Origin: Rosettibacter firmus
Lineage (GTDB): Bacteria; Bacteroidota; Ignavibacteria; Ignavibacteriales; Melioribacteraceae
DNA: 64,000 bases
Reading direction: 5' to 3'
NCBI RefSeq assembly: GCF_036860695.1
Contig: NZ_JAYKGJ010000002.1
Coordinates: 688,001 to 752,000, forward strand
The translations under genes and the position numbers were made by a program. A model generated the notes under the pieces. That model worked only from the letters and a program-made list of their open reading frames with translations. It ran no database searches and had not been told where the DNA came from. This document shows, in pieces, positions 52,559 to 57,133 of this stretch; within the stretch, counting starts at the first letter, position 1; every line of letters starts with the position of its first letter.

Positions 52559-53158
52559 TTATTCGATAAGAAATTTATAAATAAGGTAACCAAAATTTAT
52601 TTGCATTAAACCAAATGCAATACCACTATAAAGGTCTAAACGATTTACATTATTTAAAATATCCCTATCACCGCTTTTTAAGTATTCATCATATTTTCCA
52701 TCGGCTGAAATCTTAAAGTACGCAGCAAAAACTCCAAAAACTGCCGTACTTCCAATTAATACTTTGAACCATTTTGATTTTGATATTTCCTCTTTATAAA
52801 GGTTATTATAAATATTTTTTGTTAAGTCATTATCAGCAAATATTTGATTATGATTTTCAATATTAATTTTATCATCACTTAATTGATAAAATAAATTATA
52901 CACTCTGTTACAATCTTCAATGTTTAGCGTATCATAAACTTCTTTTCCATTCCATCTGTTAATAAACTTTTTAATATAAACTTCATGTACACCTGACTCT
53001 AATTCTGTTTTTATACTGCCATTTCCTAAAAACAAATTATCAACAAATATATATGAACTGCTATCATTCGTATTTATCCAGACAAGACTTTTACAACTTT
53101 GTGATTGAATATAATTAGCTATTAAAAAAAGTATTAAGATTACTTTATAAAATTTCAT
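52559..53158 (-). CDS. Secreted PEGA-like protein
   Basis: 199 residues. A signal peptide (about 1-19) is followed by a short beta domain resembling PEGA (SSYIFVDNLFLGNGSIKTELESGVHEVYI, about 34-62 in pieces), a charged middle part and two hydrophobic stretches near the C-terminus (about 130-148 and 174-196). PEGA domains occur in surface proteins of diderms and their role is unclear. It lies 1 base after the PQQ-propeller gene and ends the operon. Confidence 0.6.
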   Translation of the reverse strand: MKFYKVILILFLIANYIQSQSCKSLVWINTNDSSSYIFVDNLFLGNGSIKTELESGVHEVYIKKFINRWNGKEVYDTLNIEDCNRVYNLFYQLSDDKINIENHNQIFADNDLTKNIYNNLYKEEISKSKWFKVLIGSTAVFGVFAAYFKISADGKYDEYLKSGDRDILNNVNRLDLYSGIAFGLMQINFGYLIYKFLIE

Positions 53159-53159
53159 A

Positions 53160-54320
53160 TTAATTTTTATTAAATGTTTTATATGCTAAAATGCGTCTAT
53201 CAATTCCAAAGAATAAAATTCCATCAAAATATACTGGTGTTAGTTTTAATCTTGCTTCATAATTTATTGTTTTAAGTATTCTCCCATCAAATGGATTAAT
53301 AAAATATATCTTTCTATTGTAATCTGGTTGAATTAAAAAATTTTTTAATAATAATGGAGTTGTATTGATTATCCCATTTGTATTTATACTCCAGTTCAAT
53401 TTACCATCAACTTTTTTAATAGAATAAATTTTACCTGAAAGGTTACCGACAAAAATATTTTCGTTATTAAAGACTGGAACAGAAGTAATTTTAGTTTTTG
53501 TATTAAACTTCCATACAATCTTTTTATTAACCATATCGAAGTTATATAACGTACCAGAATAATCAGAAAAATAAATGTATTTATTATCTATTGTTATATT
53601 TCCTATAATATAATCAGAGATTTTTTGTCTGTGTAATATTTTTCCATTAGTTGCAGAAACAAAGAACAAAATTCCTCTATCATTACCAAAAACTATAATT
53701 TCTCCATTTGATGCTGGTGAAGAGTGAGTGGTTACTTTTGTATCACATTGCCAGATTTTTTCTCCTCCAAAATTAAACTTTAATACTTCACCATTATCAG
53801 TAATTACAATAATACCATCATTTAATTTCAACATTTCGTTTGAAATACTTCCATTTATTTTTTCTTCACTGATTGTTTTTCCATCAGTTAAGTCTTTCAT
53901 AATAAATAATGAATATTTTTCTTTCTTAACATTAACAATAAAATAAATTCTTAATTTGTTTATAATTGGTGCTACAGGAATTTCGCCTGAATATTTATAA
54001 TATCCGAATGATTTACCAGAGTAAGTATCAAAGCCATAAATCCTTCCCGATAAATCACCAATAAACACAAACTTCTTATTAACTATCAGTGAAGTATTGG
54101 AATGACTTCCATTGGTTTGTGCTTCCCATAATAATTGTAAAGAGTCCGTAATCTCAGCATCTTCATAAAAATCTCTCTGTGGAACTTTTCCAAACATTTC
54201 AATTCCCTGTTCAACAGGGAAATAATTTTTTATTATTAAATCTTGAGTACACGAAAAAGTTAGTAAGAGCCCCAAGATAAATATTTTCTTAAGTCGAAAT
54301 ATTTTTTTCAAAAATCCCAT
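53160..54320 (-). CDS. PQQ-type beta-propeller lipoprotein
   Basis: 386 residues. A signal peptide with LLTFSC (Cys about 24) suggests a lipoprotein. Repeating units such as GDLSGRIYGFDTYSGKSFG, GNDRGILFFVSATNGKIL, SDYSGTLYNFDMVNKKIVW and GNLSGKIYSIKKVDGKLNW are PQQ-like propeller blades; about seven can be seen. It resembles BamB in architecture, although the BamB identity is not shown. It overlaps the upstream protease-barrel gene by 13 bases. Confidence 0.78.
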   Translation of the reverse strand: MGFLKKIFRLKKIFILGLLLTFSCTQDLIIKNYFPVEQGIEMFGKVPQRDFYEDAEITDSLQLLWEAQTNGSHSNTSLIVNKKFVFIGDLSGRIYGFDTYSGKSFGYYKYSGEIPVAPIINKLRIYFIVNVKKEKYSLFIMKDLTDGKTISEEKINGSISNEMLKLNDGIIVITDNGEVLKFNFGGEKIWQCDTKVTTHSSPASNGEIIVFGNDRGILFFVSATNGKILHRQKISDYIIGNITIDNKYIYFSDYSGTLYNFDMVNKKIVWKFNTKTKITSVPVFNNENIFVGNLSGKIYSIKKVDGKLNWSINTNGIINTTPLLLKNFLIQPDYNRKIYFINPFDGRILKTINYEARLKLTPVYFDGILFFGIDRRILAYKTFNKN

Positions 54321-57133
54321 CCAAAGAAAAATTGATAAAATAATTTTGGTTGAAATCTGCTAAAATTATTTTCAATTTTTTTCCCGATATCATAACGAAG
54401 AGTTATAGCATTAAATAAATTTATACGGAATCCGAAGCCAATGCTACCAAGAGTTTCTTTGTAAGATTTATCCCAAGCAGAACCAGCATCAAAATAAACA
54501 GCACCTCTAACATTAAAAATACTTAAACCAAATAATGGAAAATTGACCTGAATTTTATCTATAAGCGGAAATCGTAATTCAAAAGATGAGAGCCATAGCT
54601 TTTGCCCTCTGATTGACCATCTTGGCCATCCACGTAAATCCCAGCTACCTCCTGCAAAATATCTTCTGGCTTGTTTTCCCTGATTAATAAAAAATGCAAA
54701 TCTGGTAGCAAATGAACTTCTTAATCCCAATCTAAAATATTTTCTATAATCAAAAATAAATGAGTAATAATTAACATTGCTGTACTTAACATCGGATGTA
54801 TAACCGAGTAAAATTCTAAATCGAGAACCATCTATAGGACCAGTTTGTGACCATATTGAATTATCATGCACAAATGAAAGTGAATTTGACACCAACAAAG
54901 ATTTTCTTGGTAAAATATTTCCAAATATTTCTTTATCTGAATTTGCAATACTTACATCAGCTTCAATTCTTTGAAAACTTGAGAAGGGATAATGTAATTC
55001 AAAATATCCACCAAAAACTCTTTCATAAAAAAATTCATCTGATTCTGTGATATCATATCTTCTTCCCGCATAATGAAATACTCCAAAACCATAATTAGTT
55101 CTTTTTTTCAAACTTATTTTACTAATAGCCACATTAAAATTTTTTAATATTTCGCTTTGTACTTCTGCCGTGTTATAAATGTAAAACAGATATCTATCGT
55201 CTCCCATTAAATCACTTAAAGAAAATAATGCACCTCCACGAGAACCATAGATTGGATCTGTAGACAATTGTCCTACAGCATAATCAAGTGTATATTCAGT
55301 TTCATATTTCAAACGTTCATCTGTAGCAGGAACAACAATTTCTTTAGCAAGCCATAAATTTCTTGATTTGAGTAAATCGAAATTAACAGAAGAGTAATTG
55401 TTTTCATTTTCACTTAAAACCAGATAATAAAATTGAAATGAATATTTTTCAAAAGCAGAAGTAACTAAGCTACTGTCGTTAATAAATGTAAAACTATAAA
55501 CACTTGTTAAAAATTTTGTAACCTGCTCAATTTTATTAGAATTATTACTGTTATATTTTAATTTCCAGATGTTATAAGTGCCATCATAATCGCAATTAAA
55601 AAATAGTTCAGAATAATCTGGTGTAAACTGTGGTGAAGAGATATTGGCATTCACATAAGTTAAGTAATAAATTGAATTGTCATTCAAATTATATTCAAAC
55701 AAGTTATATTTTTGCTGATATTCCCCTGCAGTACGATCAGAAGCAAAAATTATTTTTGTGTTGTCTTTATTAAAAACAGGATCAATATCCGAGTAATAAT
55801 CATTGGTAATTCTTGTTAATTTATTTTCAATAAAATTATAAATGTAAATATCTGTAAAGCCTTTTCTATCTGCAGCTGTAAACAATAATAATTTCCCATC
55901 ACTCGAAAAACTTGGCGAACGAATTGTAATTAAATTATTAAATCTGAGTGTTTCAATAATTTTTTTCTCTTTAATTGAATAAATATGAATAACATCGTTA
56001 TATAGTGATTTAGTAACAAAAGCTAATTTACCATCTTTAGACACATCAAGTGTTTTGTCAAGTAGATGAAATGCTTCGAATTCTGGTTGCTTTTCTCCTT
56101 CGATTAATACTTCTGGTTTTTCTGGCTCTGAATTATCTGGATTAAATTTCATTTTAAATACAGAAGAATAACCATTGCGATTACCAATAAAATAAATTTC
56201 TTTTACACCATTATTATCAAAAAACTTTGGTTCAAAATTGTATCCTTCATTTGTTAACTTTTTTGATTTTATGAAATGAGGAAAATTATCTTTAAACAAA
56301 GGGAAATATTTCTGTTGAAGTGAATAGTACCATTTATTTCCTATTTCCTGAATAGATTCGCCTAAGGTAAATTCGAGATTATCTTTGAATGAATTAAATC
56401 TCCAGAAGTTATCGAGTAACTGAATTATTTTTTCTTCTCCGTAATTCTTAGAAACGAATTCAAGAAAATTCTGTCCTTCTTTATAAATTAAATAACCACT
56501 TGCCGCATCAAGTTCATGAAGGGGTACAAAATAATTGTTTAGAACAAAATCTCTCATAACCATTTCAGCTTGAGTATCCCATTCATAAGACCAGTACTCT
56601 GCCAGACCTTCAACAAACCAGAGTGGTGGCATTCTTTCTGTATCAATTCTGTGATCTCTCAAAACATTAAATATTTTGTTTGTCATAAATACATGAACAA
56701 GTTCGTGACGTATTACATGTTTGAAACTTTCCAGTGAACCGAGATAAGGGATTACAACTCTTCCTTTCATAAACTCAAAAAAGCCACCAACTCCTTCAGG
56801 AATAAAACCAGGTGTGATGTTTGTCTGTTGAAAATGAATATGAGTATTATAAAAGATGAGAGGAATTTTAGTTGTTACATAGTGATTAAATTTTACTTTG
56901 AATTCTTCGAATGCTTCTTCTGCGTAATATGCTCCTATTTTAGCAAGTTGTTCGAAGTCGTCATAATAATAAATATTAAAGTGCTCAGTTCTGAGCACTT
57001 TCCAATCAAATTTTTCATATTGAACTTTATTTCTACCGAAGAAGTAAAATTGAGCAAAATTTACATGAGGAATTAATAAAATCAGAAATAAAAATTTTCG
57101 GATTTTATTTAATAACCTCAAAATAAAATTCAA
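54308..57133 (-). CDS. Peptidase MA-like / TolB-propeller / D15-type beta-barrel fusion protein
   Basis: 941 residues. A signal peptide (about 10-27) leads into a gluzincin-type metallopeptidase: HELVH (143-147), with Glu175 or Glu179 in FVEGLAEYW as third ligand. A TolB/WD40-like propeller follows (about 285-590; SDGKLLLFTAADRKGFTDIY, FNKDNTKIIFASDRTAG). The last 320 residues look like an outer membrane barrel of the D15/BamA type and end in Phe, the usual OMP signature. The start is TTG at 57133, overlapping the upstream stop as TTGA, with AAAGGA 6 bases before. Substrate and role are unknown. Confidence 0.8.
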   Translation of the reverse strand: MNFILRLLNKIRKFLFLILLIPHVNFAQFYFFGRNKVQYEKFDWKVLRTEHFNIYYYDDFEQLAKIGAYYAEEAFEEFKVKFNHYVTTKIPLIFYNTHIHFQQTNITPGFIPEGVGGFFEFMKGRVVIPYLGSLESFKHVIRHELVHVFMTNKIFNVLRDHRIDTERMPPLWFVEGLAEYWSYEWDTQAEMVMRDFVLNNYFVPLHELDAASGYLIYKEGQNFLEFVSKNYGEEKIIQLLDNFWRFNSFKDNLEFTLGESIQEIGNKWYYSLQQKYFPLFKDNFPHFIKSKKLTNEGYNFEPKFFDNNGVKEIYFIGNRNGYSSVFKMKFNPDNSEPEKPEVLIEGEKQPEFEAFHLLDKTLDVSKDGKLAFVTKSLYNDVIHIYSIKEKKIIETLRFNNLITIRSPSFSSDGKLLLFTAADRKGFTDIYIYNFIENKLTRITNDYYSDIDPVFNKDNTKIIFASDRTAGEYQQKYNLFEYNLNDNSIYYLTYVNANISSPQFTPDYSELFFNCDYDGTYNIWKLKYNSNNSNKIEQVTKFLTSVYSFTFINDSSLVTSAFEKYSFQFYYLVLSENENNYSSVNFDLLKSRNLWLAKEIVVPATDERLKYETEYTLDYAVGQLSTDPIYGSRGGALFSLSDLMGDDRYLFYIYNTAEVQSEILKNFNVAISKISLKKRTNYGFGVFHYAGRRYDITESDEFFYERVFGGYFELHYPFSSFQRIEADVSIANSDKEIFGNILPRKSLLVSNSLSFVHDNSIWSQTGPIDGSRFRILLGYTSDVKYSNVNYYSFIFDYRKYFRLGLRSSFATRFAFFINQGKQARRYFAGGSWDLRGWPRWSIRGQKLWLSSFELRFPLIDKIQVNFPLFGLSIFNVRGAVYFDAGSAWDKSYKETLGSIGFGFRINLFNAITLRYDIGKKIENNFSRFQPKLFYQFFFGWDF

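What the first reader, a model, noticed from the sequence alone, without database searches (positions are those of the whole stretch)
54308..57133. One protein joining a metallopeptidase, a TolB-like propeller and an outer membrane barrel
The 941-residue protein has a complete HELVH plus Glu gluzincin site near residues 143-179, propeller repeats in the middle and a D15/BamA-like barrel ending in Phe. Family knowledge says these parts usually act in separate proteins. The gene after it encodes a PQQ-propeller lipoprotein (BamB-like architecture) with a 13-base overlap, then a PEGA-like secreted protein. Inference: a dedicated outer membrane processing or export machine.
Basis: partly seen in the sequence, partly recalled or inferred. 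Interest (0 to 1): 0.65.

Follow-up and report, generated by a model that had tools for sequence, protein, structure and literature searches.

The report
Outer-membrane barrel fused to a protease
This gene encodes an outer-membrane barrel protein that carries its own metal-dependent protease and a propeller docking domain, and it travels through one bacterial phylum with the same two partner genes, so the three probably work together on proteins at the outer membrane.

Summary
The 941-residue protein (window 57133-54308, minus strand; a Melioribacteraceae-like Ignavibacteria genome) has a signal peptide, a gluzincin metallopeptidase domain (about 41-285), a TolB-like propeller (310-577) and a 16-stranded Omp85 barrel (614-939). 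It has no POTRA domain. Sequence profiles, an AlphaFold model and fold searches agree. The zinc site (HExxH...WFxEGxA) is intact in all 75 Ignavibacteria loci examined and in 21 phylum-wide relatives down to 37% identity.

The new result is the module. A PQQ-propeller lipoprotein gene follows in 62 of 62 Ignavibacteria loci and 28 of 30 phylum-wide loci, usually with a PEGA-like protein next. Across 296 genomes, core and lipoprotein agree in 292 (68 both, 224 neither). In two genomes where the partners have left the core's neighbourhood, they sit together.

The architecture is not unique. The same genome has two divergent paralogues of this layout, and propeller-Omp85 fusions were published in 2014, without mention of a peptidase. 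I read the module as a periplasm-facing assembly, processing or quality-control machine at the outer membrane. Composition and linkage are shown; the complex and its function are inferred. Verdict: a real, widely conserved new variant of the Omp85 family.

The parts
54308..57133 (-). Core gene: 941-aa signal peptide + gluzincin peptidase + TolB-like propeller + 16-strand Omp85 barrel; TTG start overlapping the upstream isomerase stop (TTGA), AAAGGAA upstream
57050..57133 (-). Signal peptide (residues 1-27/28, ...NFA|QF; Gln28 invariant or nearly so in orthologues); no lipobox Cys
   Evidence: cleavage site read by eye
56264..57013 (-). Gluzincin metallopeptidase domain (residues 41-290 modelled alone)
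   Evidence: top rows are M9 collagenases, M30 lugdulysin and M1-type peptidases, Z up to 15.8; Peptidase_MA_2
56693..56707 (-). HELVH zinc motif, residues 143-147
56594..56620 (-). WFVEGLAEY (residues 172-180) with the third zinc ligand Glu (Glu175 by analogy with the M1 NExxA motif)
   Evidence: ligand assignment from family knowledge
55403..56206 (-). TolB-like beta-propeller, residues 310-577
   Evidence: Z 25.7, 242 residues, 2.3 A to E. coli TolB
54317..55294 (-). Omp85 barrel, 16 strands, residues 614-939
   Evidence: Z 23.8, 306 residues, 22% identity to D. radiodurans BamA
54620..54649 (-). L6 motif region GSWDLRGWPR (residues 829-838) between strands 11 and 12, equivalent of the Omp85 VRGF/Y motif; Arg834 invariant in A1 and A2
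   Evidence: equivalence from family knowledge
53160..54320 (-). Partner 1: 386-aa PQQ-propeller lipoprotein (BamB-like); its start overlaps the core stop by 13 bases
52559..53158 (-). Partner 2: 199-aa secreted PEGA-like protein with hydrophobic C-terminal segment(s); 1 base after partner 1

Best explanation
The core is a POTRA-less Omp85 protein. Its barrel sits in the outer membrane, and its N-terminal metallopeptidase and TolB-like propeller face the periplasm, where POTRA domains would be in BamA. It works with a PQQ-propeller lipoprotein and a PEGA-like membrane-attached protein as a three-part envelope machine. Most likely, unfolded or immature outer-membrane or exported proteins dock on the propellers, and the peptidase trims or removes clients next to the barrel, as BepA does on the BAM complex but with protease and Omp85 barrel in one chain. 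Shown: domain make-up, conserved active-site motif, operon order, co-occurrence. Inferred: periplasmic topology, physical complex, protease activity, client type. Whether the barrel itself inserts clients is left open.
For: Model and fold matches for all three domains. Zinc motif present in all 75 Ignavibacteria loci examined and in 21 phylum-wide relatives down to 37% identity. Arg834 and Asp882 invariant in both alignments. Lipoprotein gene directly downstream in 62/62 and 28/30 loci. Co-occurrence: 11/11 core-positive genomes have a lipoprotein match of 283 bits or more; the 11 core-negative genomes reach at most 122 bits, partial. Phylum: 68 both, 3 core only, 1 lipoprotein only, 224 neither. 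PEGA-like: 64/7/2/223. In G307 and G223 the two partners sit together away from the core. SprA and LpxC are near-universal in the same 22 genomes and do not track the core. A POTRA-bearing BamA is present elsewhere, so the core is an additional Omp85. Precedents: PlpD's enzyme domain stays periplasmic (PMC11116518); BepA acts on BAM (PMC8423444).
Against: No experiment. Domain orientation in the model is uncertain (pTM 0.69). The peptidase fold is nearest M9/M30/M1, and no M48 match was found, so the BepA comparison is by role only. Several near-complete genomes in the same family lack the module, so it is dispensable in the lineage. The Fisher value ignores phylogeny. Only Bacteroidota-phylum genomes were sampled.
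Confidence: 0.5

Rival explanations
1. The barrel is mainly an anchor and the protein is a membrane-tethered periplasmic peptidase digesting peptides or specific substrates; the propellers only choose substrates.
For: No POTRA domain (no Pfam match, and only a 37-residue linker between propeller and barrel). PlpD is a precedent of an enzyme-Omp85 that differs from the assembly and translocation members. BamA and other POTRA-bearing Omp85s are already present.
Against: L6 motif and other barrel residues are among the most conserved positions; a plain anchor might not need them so strictly. It does not explain the fixed lipoprotein and PEGA-like partners.
Confidence: 0.3
2. The barrel exports or displays: it moves the peptidase-propeller part, or a partner, to the cell surface, as in two-partner or other type V secretion.
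For: The Omp85/TpsB superfamily includes FhaC-type exporters; surface peptidases would suit heterotrophs (general knowledge).
Against: The partner is a predicted lipoprotein, not a TpsA-like substrate. The nearest studied case, PlpD, was shown not to be secreted. A T9SS marker (SprA) is present in all 22 genomes checked, with and without the core.
Confidence: 0.1
3. A specialised insertase or envelope-lipid factor in which the metallopeptidase fold is only a substrate-binding part.
For: BamB-like partner and TolB-like propeller suit an assembly platform; Heinz and Lithgow compared WD40-Omp85 proteins to a BamA-BamB fusion (PMC4104836).
Against: The catalytic set His143, Glu144, His147, Glu175 is invariant, which a dead enzyme would not be expected to keep. 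LpxC presence does not track the module.
Confidence: 0.1

Closest known systems
WD40-Omp85 subfamily (Heinz and Lithgow 2014, PMC4104836)
   Same: Omp85 barrel preceded by a TolB-like propeller instead of POTRA domains; the paper notes expanded Omp85 diversity in Bacteroidetes/Chlorobi and Ignavibacteria.
   Different: The main text describes only the propeller; 'peptidase' does not occur in it. No partner genes are described. Their 'Metallo' class carries PF00149, a metallophosphoesterase domain by family knowledge, not this peptidase.
PlpD / patatin-Omp85 (type Vd)
   Same: A hydrolase fused N-terminally to an Omp85 barrel in one chain.
   Different: Patatin-like lipase, not peptidase; one POTRA domain, no propeller.
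BepA (M48 metallopeptidase) on the BAM complex
   Same: Periplasmic zinc metallopeptidase working beside an Omp85 barrel; a role analogy only.
   Different: Separate protein of family M48; the domain here folds like M9/M30/M1 peptidases.
BamB
   Same: The downstream gene encodes a PQQ-like propeller lipoprotein, as BamB is.
   Different: Scores 87.6 bits against the BamB equivalog cut-off of 285.2; linked to a POTRA-less core, not to bamA.
TolB of Tol-Pal
   Same: The propeller superposes on TolB at Z 25.7, 2.3 A over 242 residues.
   Different: Scores 79.6 bits against the TolB equivalog cut-off of 343; embedded in an Omp85 protein.

Membership tests
Omp85 superfamily | 16-stranded C-terminal barrel | tested here: met
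   Model with 16 strands, residues 614-939; Z 23.8 to D. radiodurans BamA
Omp85 superfamily | PF01103 score over the curated cut-off | tested here: met
   40.5 bits against 24; 16 of 21 relatives match
Omp85 superfamily | L6 RGF/Y-type motif and C-terminal aromatic residue | tested here: met
   LRGW with Arg834 invariant, Phe941 invariant; motif between strands 11 and 12
Omp85 superfamily | At least one POTRA domain before the barrel (feature of most members) | tested here: not met
   No POTRA match; 37-residue linker between propeller and barrel. The published WD40 and noNterm subfamilies also depart from the POTRA-bearing layout (PMC4104836)
WD40-Omp85 subfamily (PMC4104836) | N-terminal TolB-like propeller plus Omp85 barrel | tested here: met
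WD40-Omp85 subfamily (PMC4104836) | Sequence cluster membership in the published tables | not testable with these tools
Gluzincin (clan MA(E)) metallopeptidases | HExxH plus downstream Glu ligand | tested here: met
   Invariant in A1 and A2; all 75 Ignavibacteria loci checked
Gluzincin (clan MA(E)) metallopeptidases | Gluzincin fold | tested here: met
   The 50 VIA rows shown are M9, M30 and M1-type gluzincins, Z 12.3-15.8; Foldseek E-values alone are weak, best 6.7e-3
Gluzincin (clan MA(E)) metallopeptidases | Zinc-dependent proteolysis | not testable with these tools
   Needs purified protein
Peptidase_MA_2 (PF13485) | Score over the curated cut-off | tested here: not met
   29.1 bits against 32.4 in the window protein; all 21 aligned relatives match, best E 1.1e-10; 1084-aa paralogue 54.4 bits
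TolB | TIGR02800 equivalog score | tested here: not met
   79.6 against 343 bits: TolB-like propeller, not TolB
BamB (for the downstream gene) | TIGR03300 equivalog score | tested here: not met
   87.6 against 285.2 bits: BamB-like propeller lipoprotein, not BamB
BepA (M48) | M48 family sequence match | tested here: not met
   No M48 match in Pfam or NCBIfam
BamA (main insertase) | Multiple POTRA domains | tested here: not met
   None in this protein; the genome's BamA is elsewhere with 5 POTRA stretches

The most novel reading that the evidence does not exclude
A previously undescribed, strictly co-inherited three-protein outer-membrane machine in part of the Bacteroidota phylum, in which one polypeptide is both an active Omp85 assembly barrel and its own quality-control or processing protease, served by a BamB-like lipoprotein and a PEGA-like protein that may reach from the inner membrane.
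Probability: 0.4. Interest if true: 0.72.

Novelty: new variant of a known kind. Interest (0 to 1): 0.55.

Why it matters
Outer-membrane assembly and proteolytic quality control are carried by separate proteins in the model bacteria. A lineage that has fused a protease to an Omp85 barrel, and inherited the fusion with two fixed partners, offers a natural test of whether a POTRA-less Omp85 barrel can assemble or process clients. It also points to envelope machinery in Ignavibacteria and related classes that has not been studied by experiment, as far as the searched library shows.

Tried and rejected
T9SS link: SprA is in all 22 genomes with and without the core, so its presence does not explain the pattern. 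LPS link: LpxC in 21 of 22, not discriminating. Synteny from a generally conserved neighbourhood: the upstream isomerase, PTS enzyme I-like and prenyl-synthase genes are often also kept, but are not seen in loci such as L053, L055-L057 and L061, where core and lipoprotein genes remain adjacent. The 1084-aa paralogue and its eight relatives examined do not carry the partner genes, so linkage is specific to the 941-aa type. The lipoprotein gene is missing next to the core in G307 and G223, but was found elsewhere beside the PEGA-like gene. Plasmid search gave only weak relatives, one annotated 'basic secretory protein-like protein'. Literature searches for a peptidase-Omp85 fusion found nothing beyond PMC4104836; most subscription papers are not held. 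The whole-model fold search was filled by propeller and barrel, so the peptidase was modelled alone. M48 (BepA) does not appear among the fold rows shown for the peptidase domain; kinship to it was considered and not supported. Distribution outside the phylum could not be tested: the single genome-contig scan kept only the best 80 loci.
Full report
OBSERVATION. The ORF at 54308-57133 on the minus strand is real: 941 residues, TTG start preceded by AAAGGAA and overlapping the stop of the upstream phosphosugar isomerase gene. Profile searches find PD40 propeller repeats (33.1 bits), Peptidase_MA_2 (29.1 bits, just under the curated cut-off of 32.4) and Omp85 (40.5 bits, over the cut-off of 24). 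Of 21 aligned sequences every one matches Peptidase_MA_2, 19 match PD40 and 16 match Omp85. The window lies in a 3.24 Mb genome whose nearest named relatives at this gene are Melioribacteraceae / Ignavibacteriales MAGs.

ANATOMY. An AlphaFold model from a 75-sequence alignment has mean pLDDT 83.7 and pTM 0.69. Residues 310-577 superpose on E. coli TolB (Z 25.7, 2.3 A, 242 residues); residues 615-941 superpose on BamA of Deinococcus radiodurans (Z 23.8, 3.8 A, 306 residues, 22% identity). The barrel has 16 strands, and the LRGW motif lies in the loop between strands 11 and 12, where Omp85 proteins carry VRGF/Y (the position is family knowledge). Arg834 and Asp882 are invariant in the 21 phylum-wide and 75 Ignavibacteria sequences. 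There is no POTRA match, and only about 37 residues separate propeller and barrel. The peptidase domain, modelled alone (mean pLDDT 82.2), matches only gluzincins among the 50 rows shown: M9 collagenases and M30 lugdulysin at Z up to 15.8, then M1-type peptidases; Foldseek alone was weak (best E 6.7e-3). His143, Glu144, His147 and Glu175 are invariant in both alignments. All 75 loci examined from named genomes keep HExxH...EGxA. Within the peptidase, IPxGVGGFFEFxKGRVV is nearly invariant although the model gives part of it (102-124) pLDDT under 50; it is a candidate partner- or substrate-binding loop (inference).

NEIGHBOURS. The next gene (13-base overlap) encodes a PQQ-like propeller with a signal sequence and a Cys that is invariant in 18 homologues, consistent with a lipoprotein. 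The third gene, one base further on, has an N-terminal signal and a hydrophobic C-terminal segment or hairpin (by a simple hydropathy rule 33 of 56 relatives show two segments, 23 one); several longer relatives carry a PEGA domain over the cut-off. In the window copy the profile's positions 126-170 have no match.

CO-INHERITANCE. In 62 of 62 Ignavibacteria loci with enough sequence the lipoprotein gene follows directly, and in 56 the PEGA-like gene too. In 30 loci across the phylum, with core identity down to about 37%, 28 keep the lipoprotein gene adjacent. In a set of 22 genomes, all 11 with the core have a lipoprotein orthologue of 283 bits or more, and none of the 11 without the core has more than a partial 122-bit match. 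In G307 and G223 the lipoprotein and PEGA-like genes sit together at another site. Over 296 phylum genomes: 68 with both core and lipoprotein, 3 with core only (G058, G063, G145; a weaker match is adjacent in each), 1 with lipoprotein only (G312, which also has the PEGA-like gene), 224 with neither; Fisher p about 4e-62, not corrected for phylogeny. The presence sets were read from the printed tables: near-full-length core matches, and lipoprotein matches over 200 bits. PEGA-like: 64/7/2/223. One search scored only two candidates per genome, so the core count is a lower bound. The lipoprotein profile was built from core-adjacent copies, so diverged copies elsewhere could be missed. SprA and LpxC are present in nearly all of the 22 genomes and show that ordinary envelope genes do not follow this pattern.

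CONTEXT. The genome has a POTRA-bearing BamA, two further POTRA-bearing Omp85 proteins and a patatin-Omp85, so the core is not the main insertase. Two further proteins of the same peptidase-propeller-barrel layout are present: 1084 aa (33% identical in a three-way alignment) and 1023 aa (24%). The 1084-aa type is widespread in the phylum sample and lacks the partner genes in the nine loci examined.

MECHANISM. Shown: composition, conserved site, operon order, co-inheritance. From established knowledge: N-terminal parts of Omp85 proteins face the periplasm; PlpD's enzyme domain was shown to stay there (PMC11116518); BepA edits clients on BAM (PMC8423444). Inferred: a periplasm-facing complex that docks clients on two propellers and trims or removes them by the metallopeptidase beside a barrel that may also assist insertion. 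I put 0.5 on this reading, 0.3 on an anchored peptidase with a passive barrel, 0.1 each on display/export and on an insertase with a non-catalytic peptidase fold.

COMPARISON AND NOVELTY. The nearest published kind is the WD40-Omp85 subfamily (PMC4104836), described as propeller plus barrel and likened to a BamA-BamB fusion; the word peptidase is absent from its main text, and its 'Metallo' class is PF00149, which is a different domain. The 2025 paper on the Flavobacterium johnsoniae BAM complex (PMC12611786) mentions neither propeller nor peptidase. I therefore rate the finding a new variant of a known kind: Omp85 membership is met on barrel, profile and motif; the POTRA feature of most members is tested and not met; and the three-gene module is not described in the library searched.

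Noticed in passing
L070:9256-12507 (own genome C1:597255-600506): 1084-aa paralogue with the same peptidase-propeller-barrel layout, widespread in the phylum sample, without the PQQ and PEGA partners; an RNase R-like gene and a large DUF748 gene lie upstream in this genome.
   Followed up: partly
L160:2666-5734 and L163:3902-7066: A third type (1023 and 1055 aa, HEFTH site, propeller, barrel-like C-terminus) sits beside a large secreted protein of about 1006-1010 aa with a C-terminal end that looks like a T9SS sorting domain, in both genomes looked at.
   Followed up: partly
window 56762-56830 (residues 102-124): Part of the nearly invariant IPxGVGGFFEFxKGRVV stretch in the peptidase domain is predicted with pLDDT under 50 despite its conservation; shared with the 1084-aa paralogue but not the 1023-aa one.
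   Followed up: no
L166:6704-8636 (genome G312): PQQ lipoprotein and PEGA-like genes side by side without a detected core gene: the only such genome of 296.
   Followed up: partly
L161 and L162 (genomes G307, G223): The two partner genes sit together at a site away from the core gene.
   Followed up: yes
L003:1495-3924: The own genome also encodes a patatin-Omp85 (PlpD-like) protein.
   Followed up: no
window 54308-54320: The conserved C-terminus FFFGWDF-stop of the core overlaps the start of the lipoprotein gene (ATGGGATTTTTGA reads MGFL in the other frame); an MGFL-type start appears in many orthologues.
   Followed up: partly
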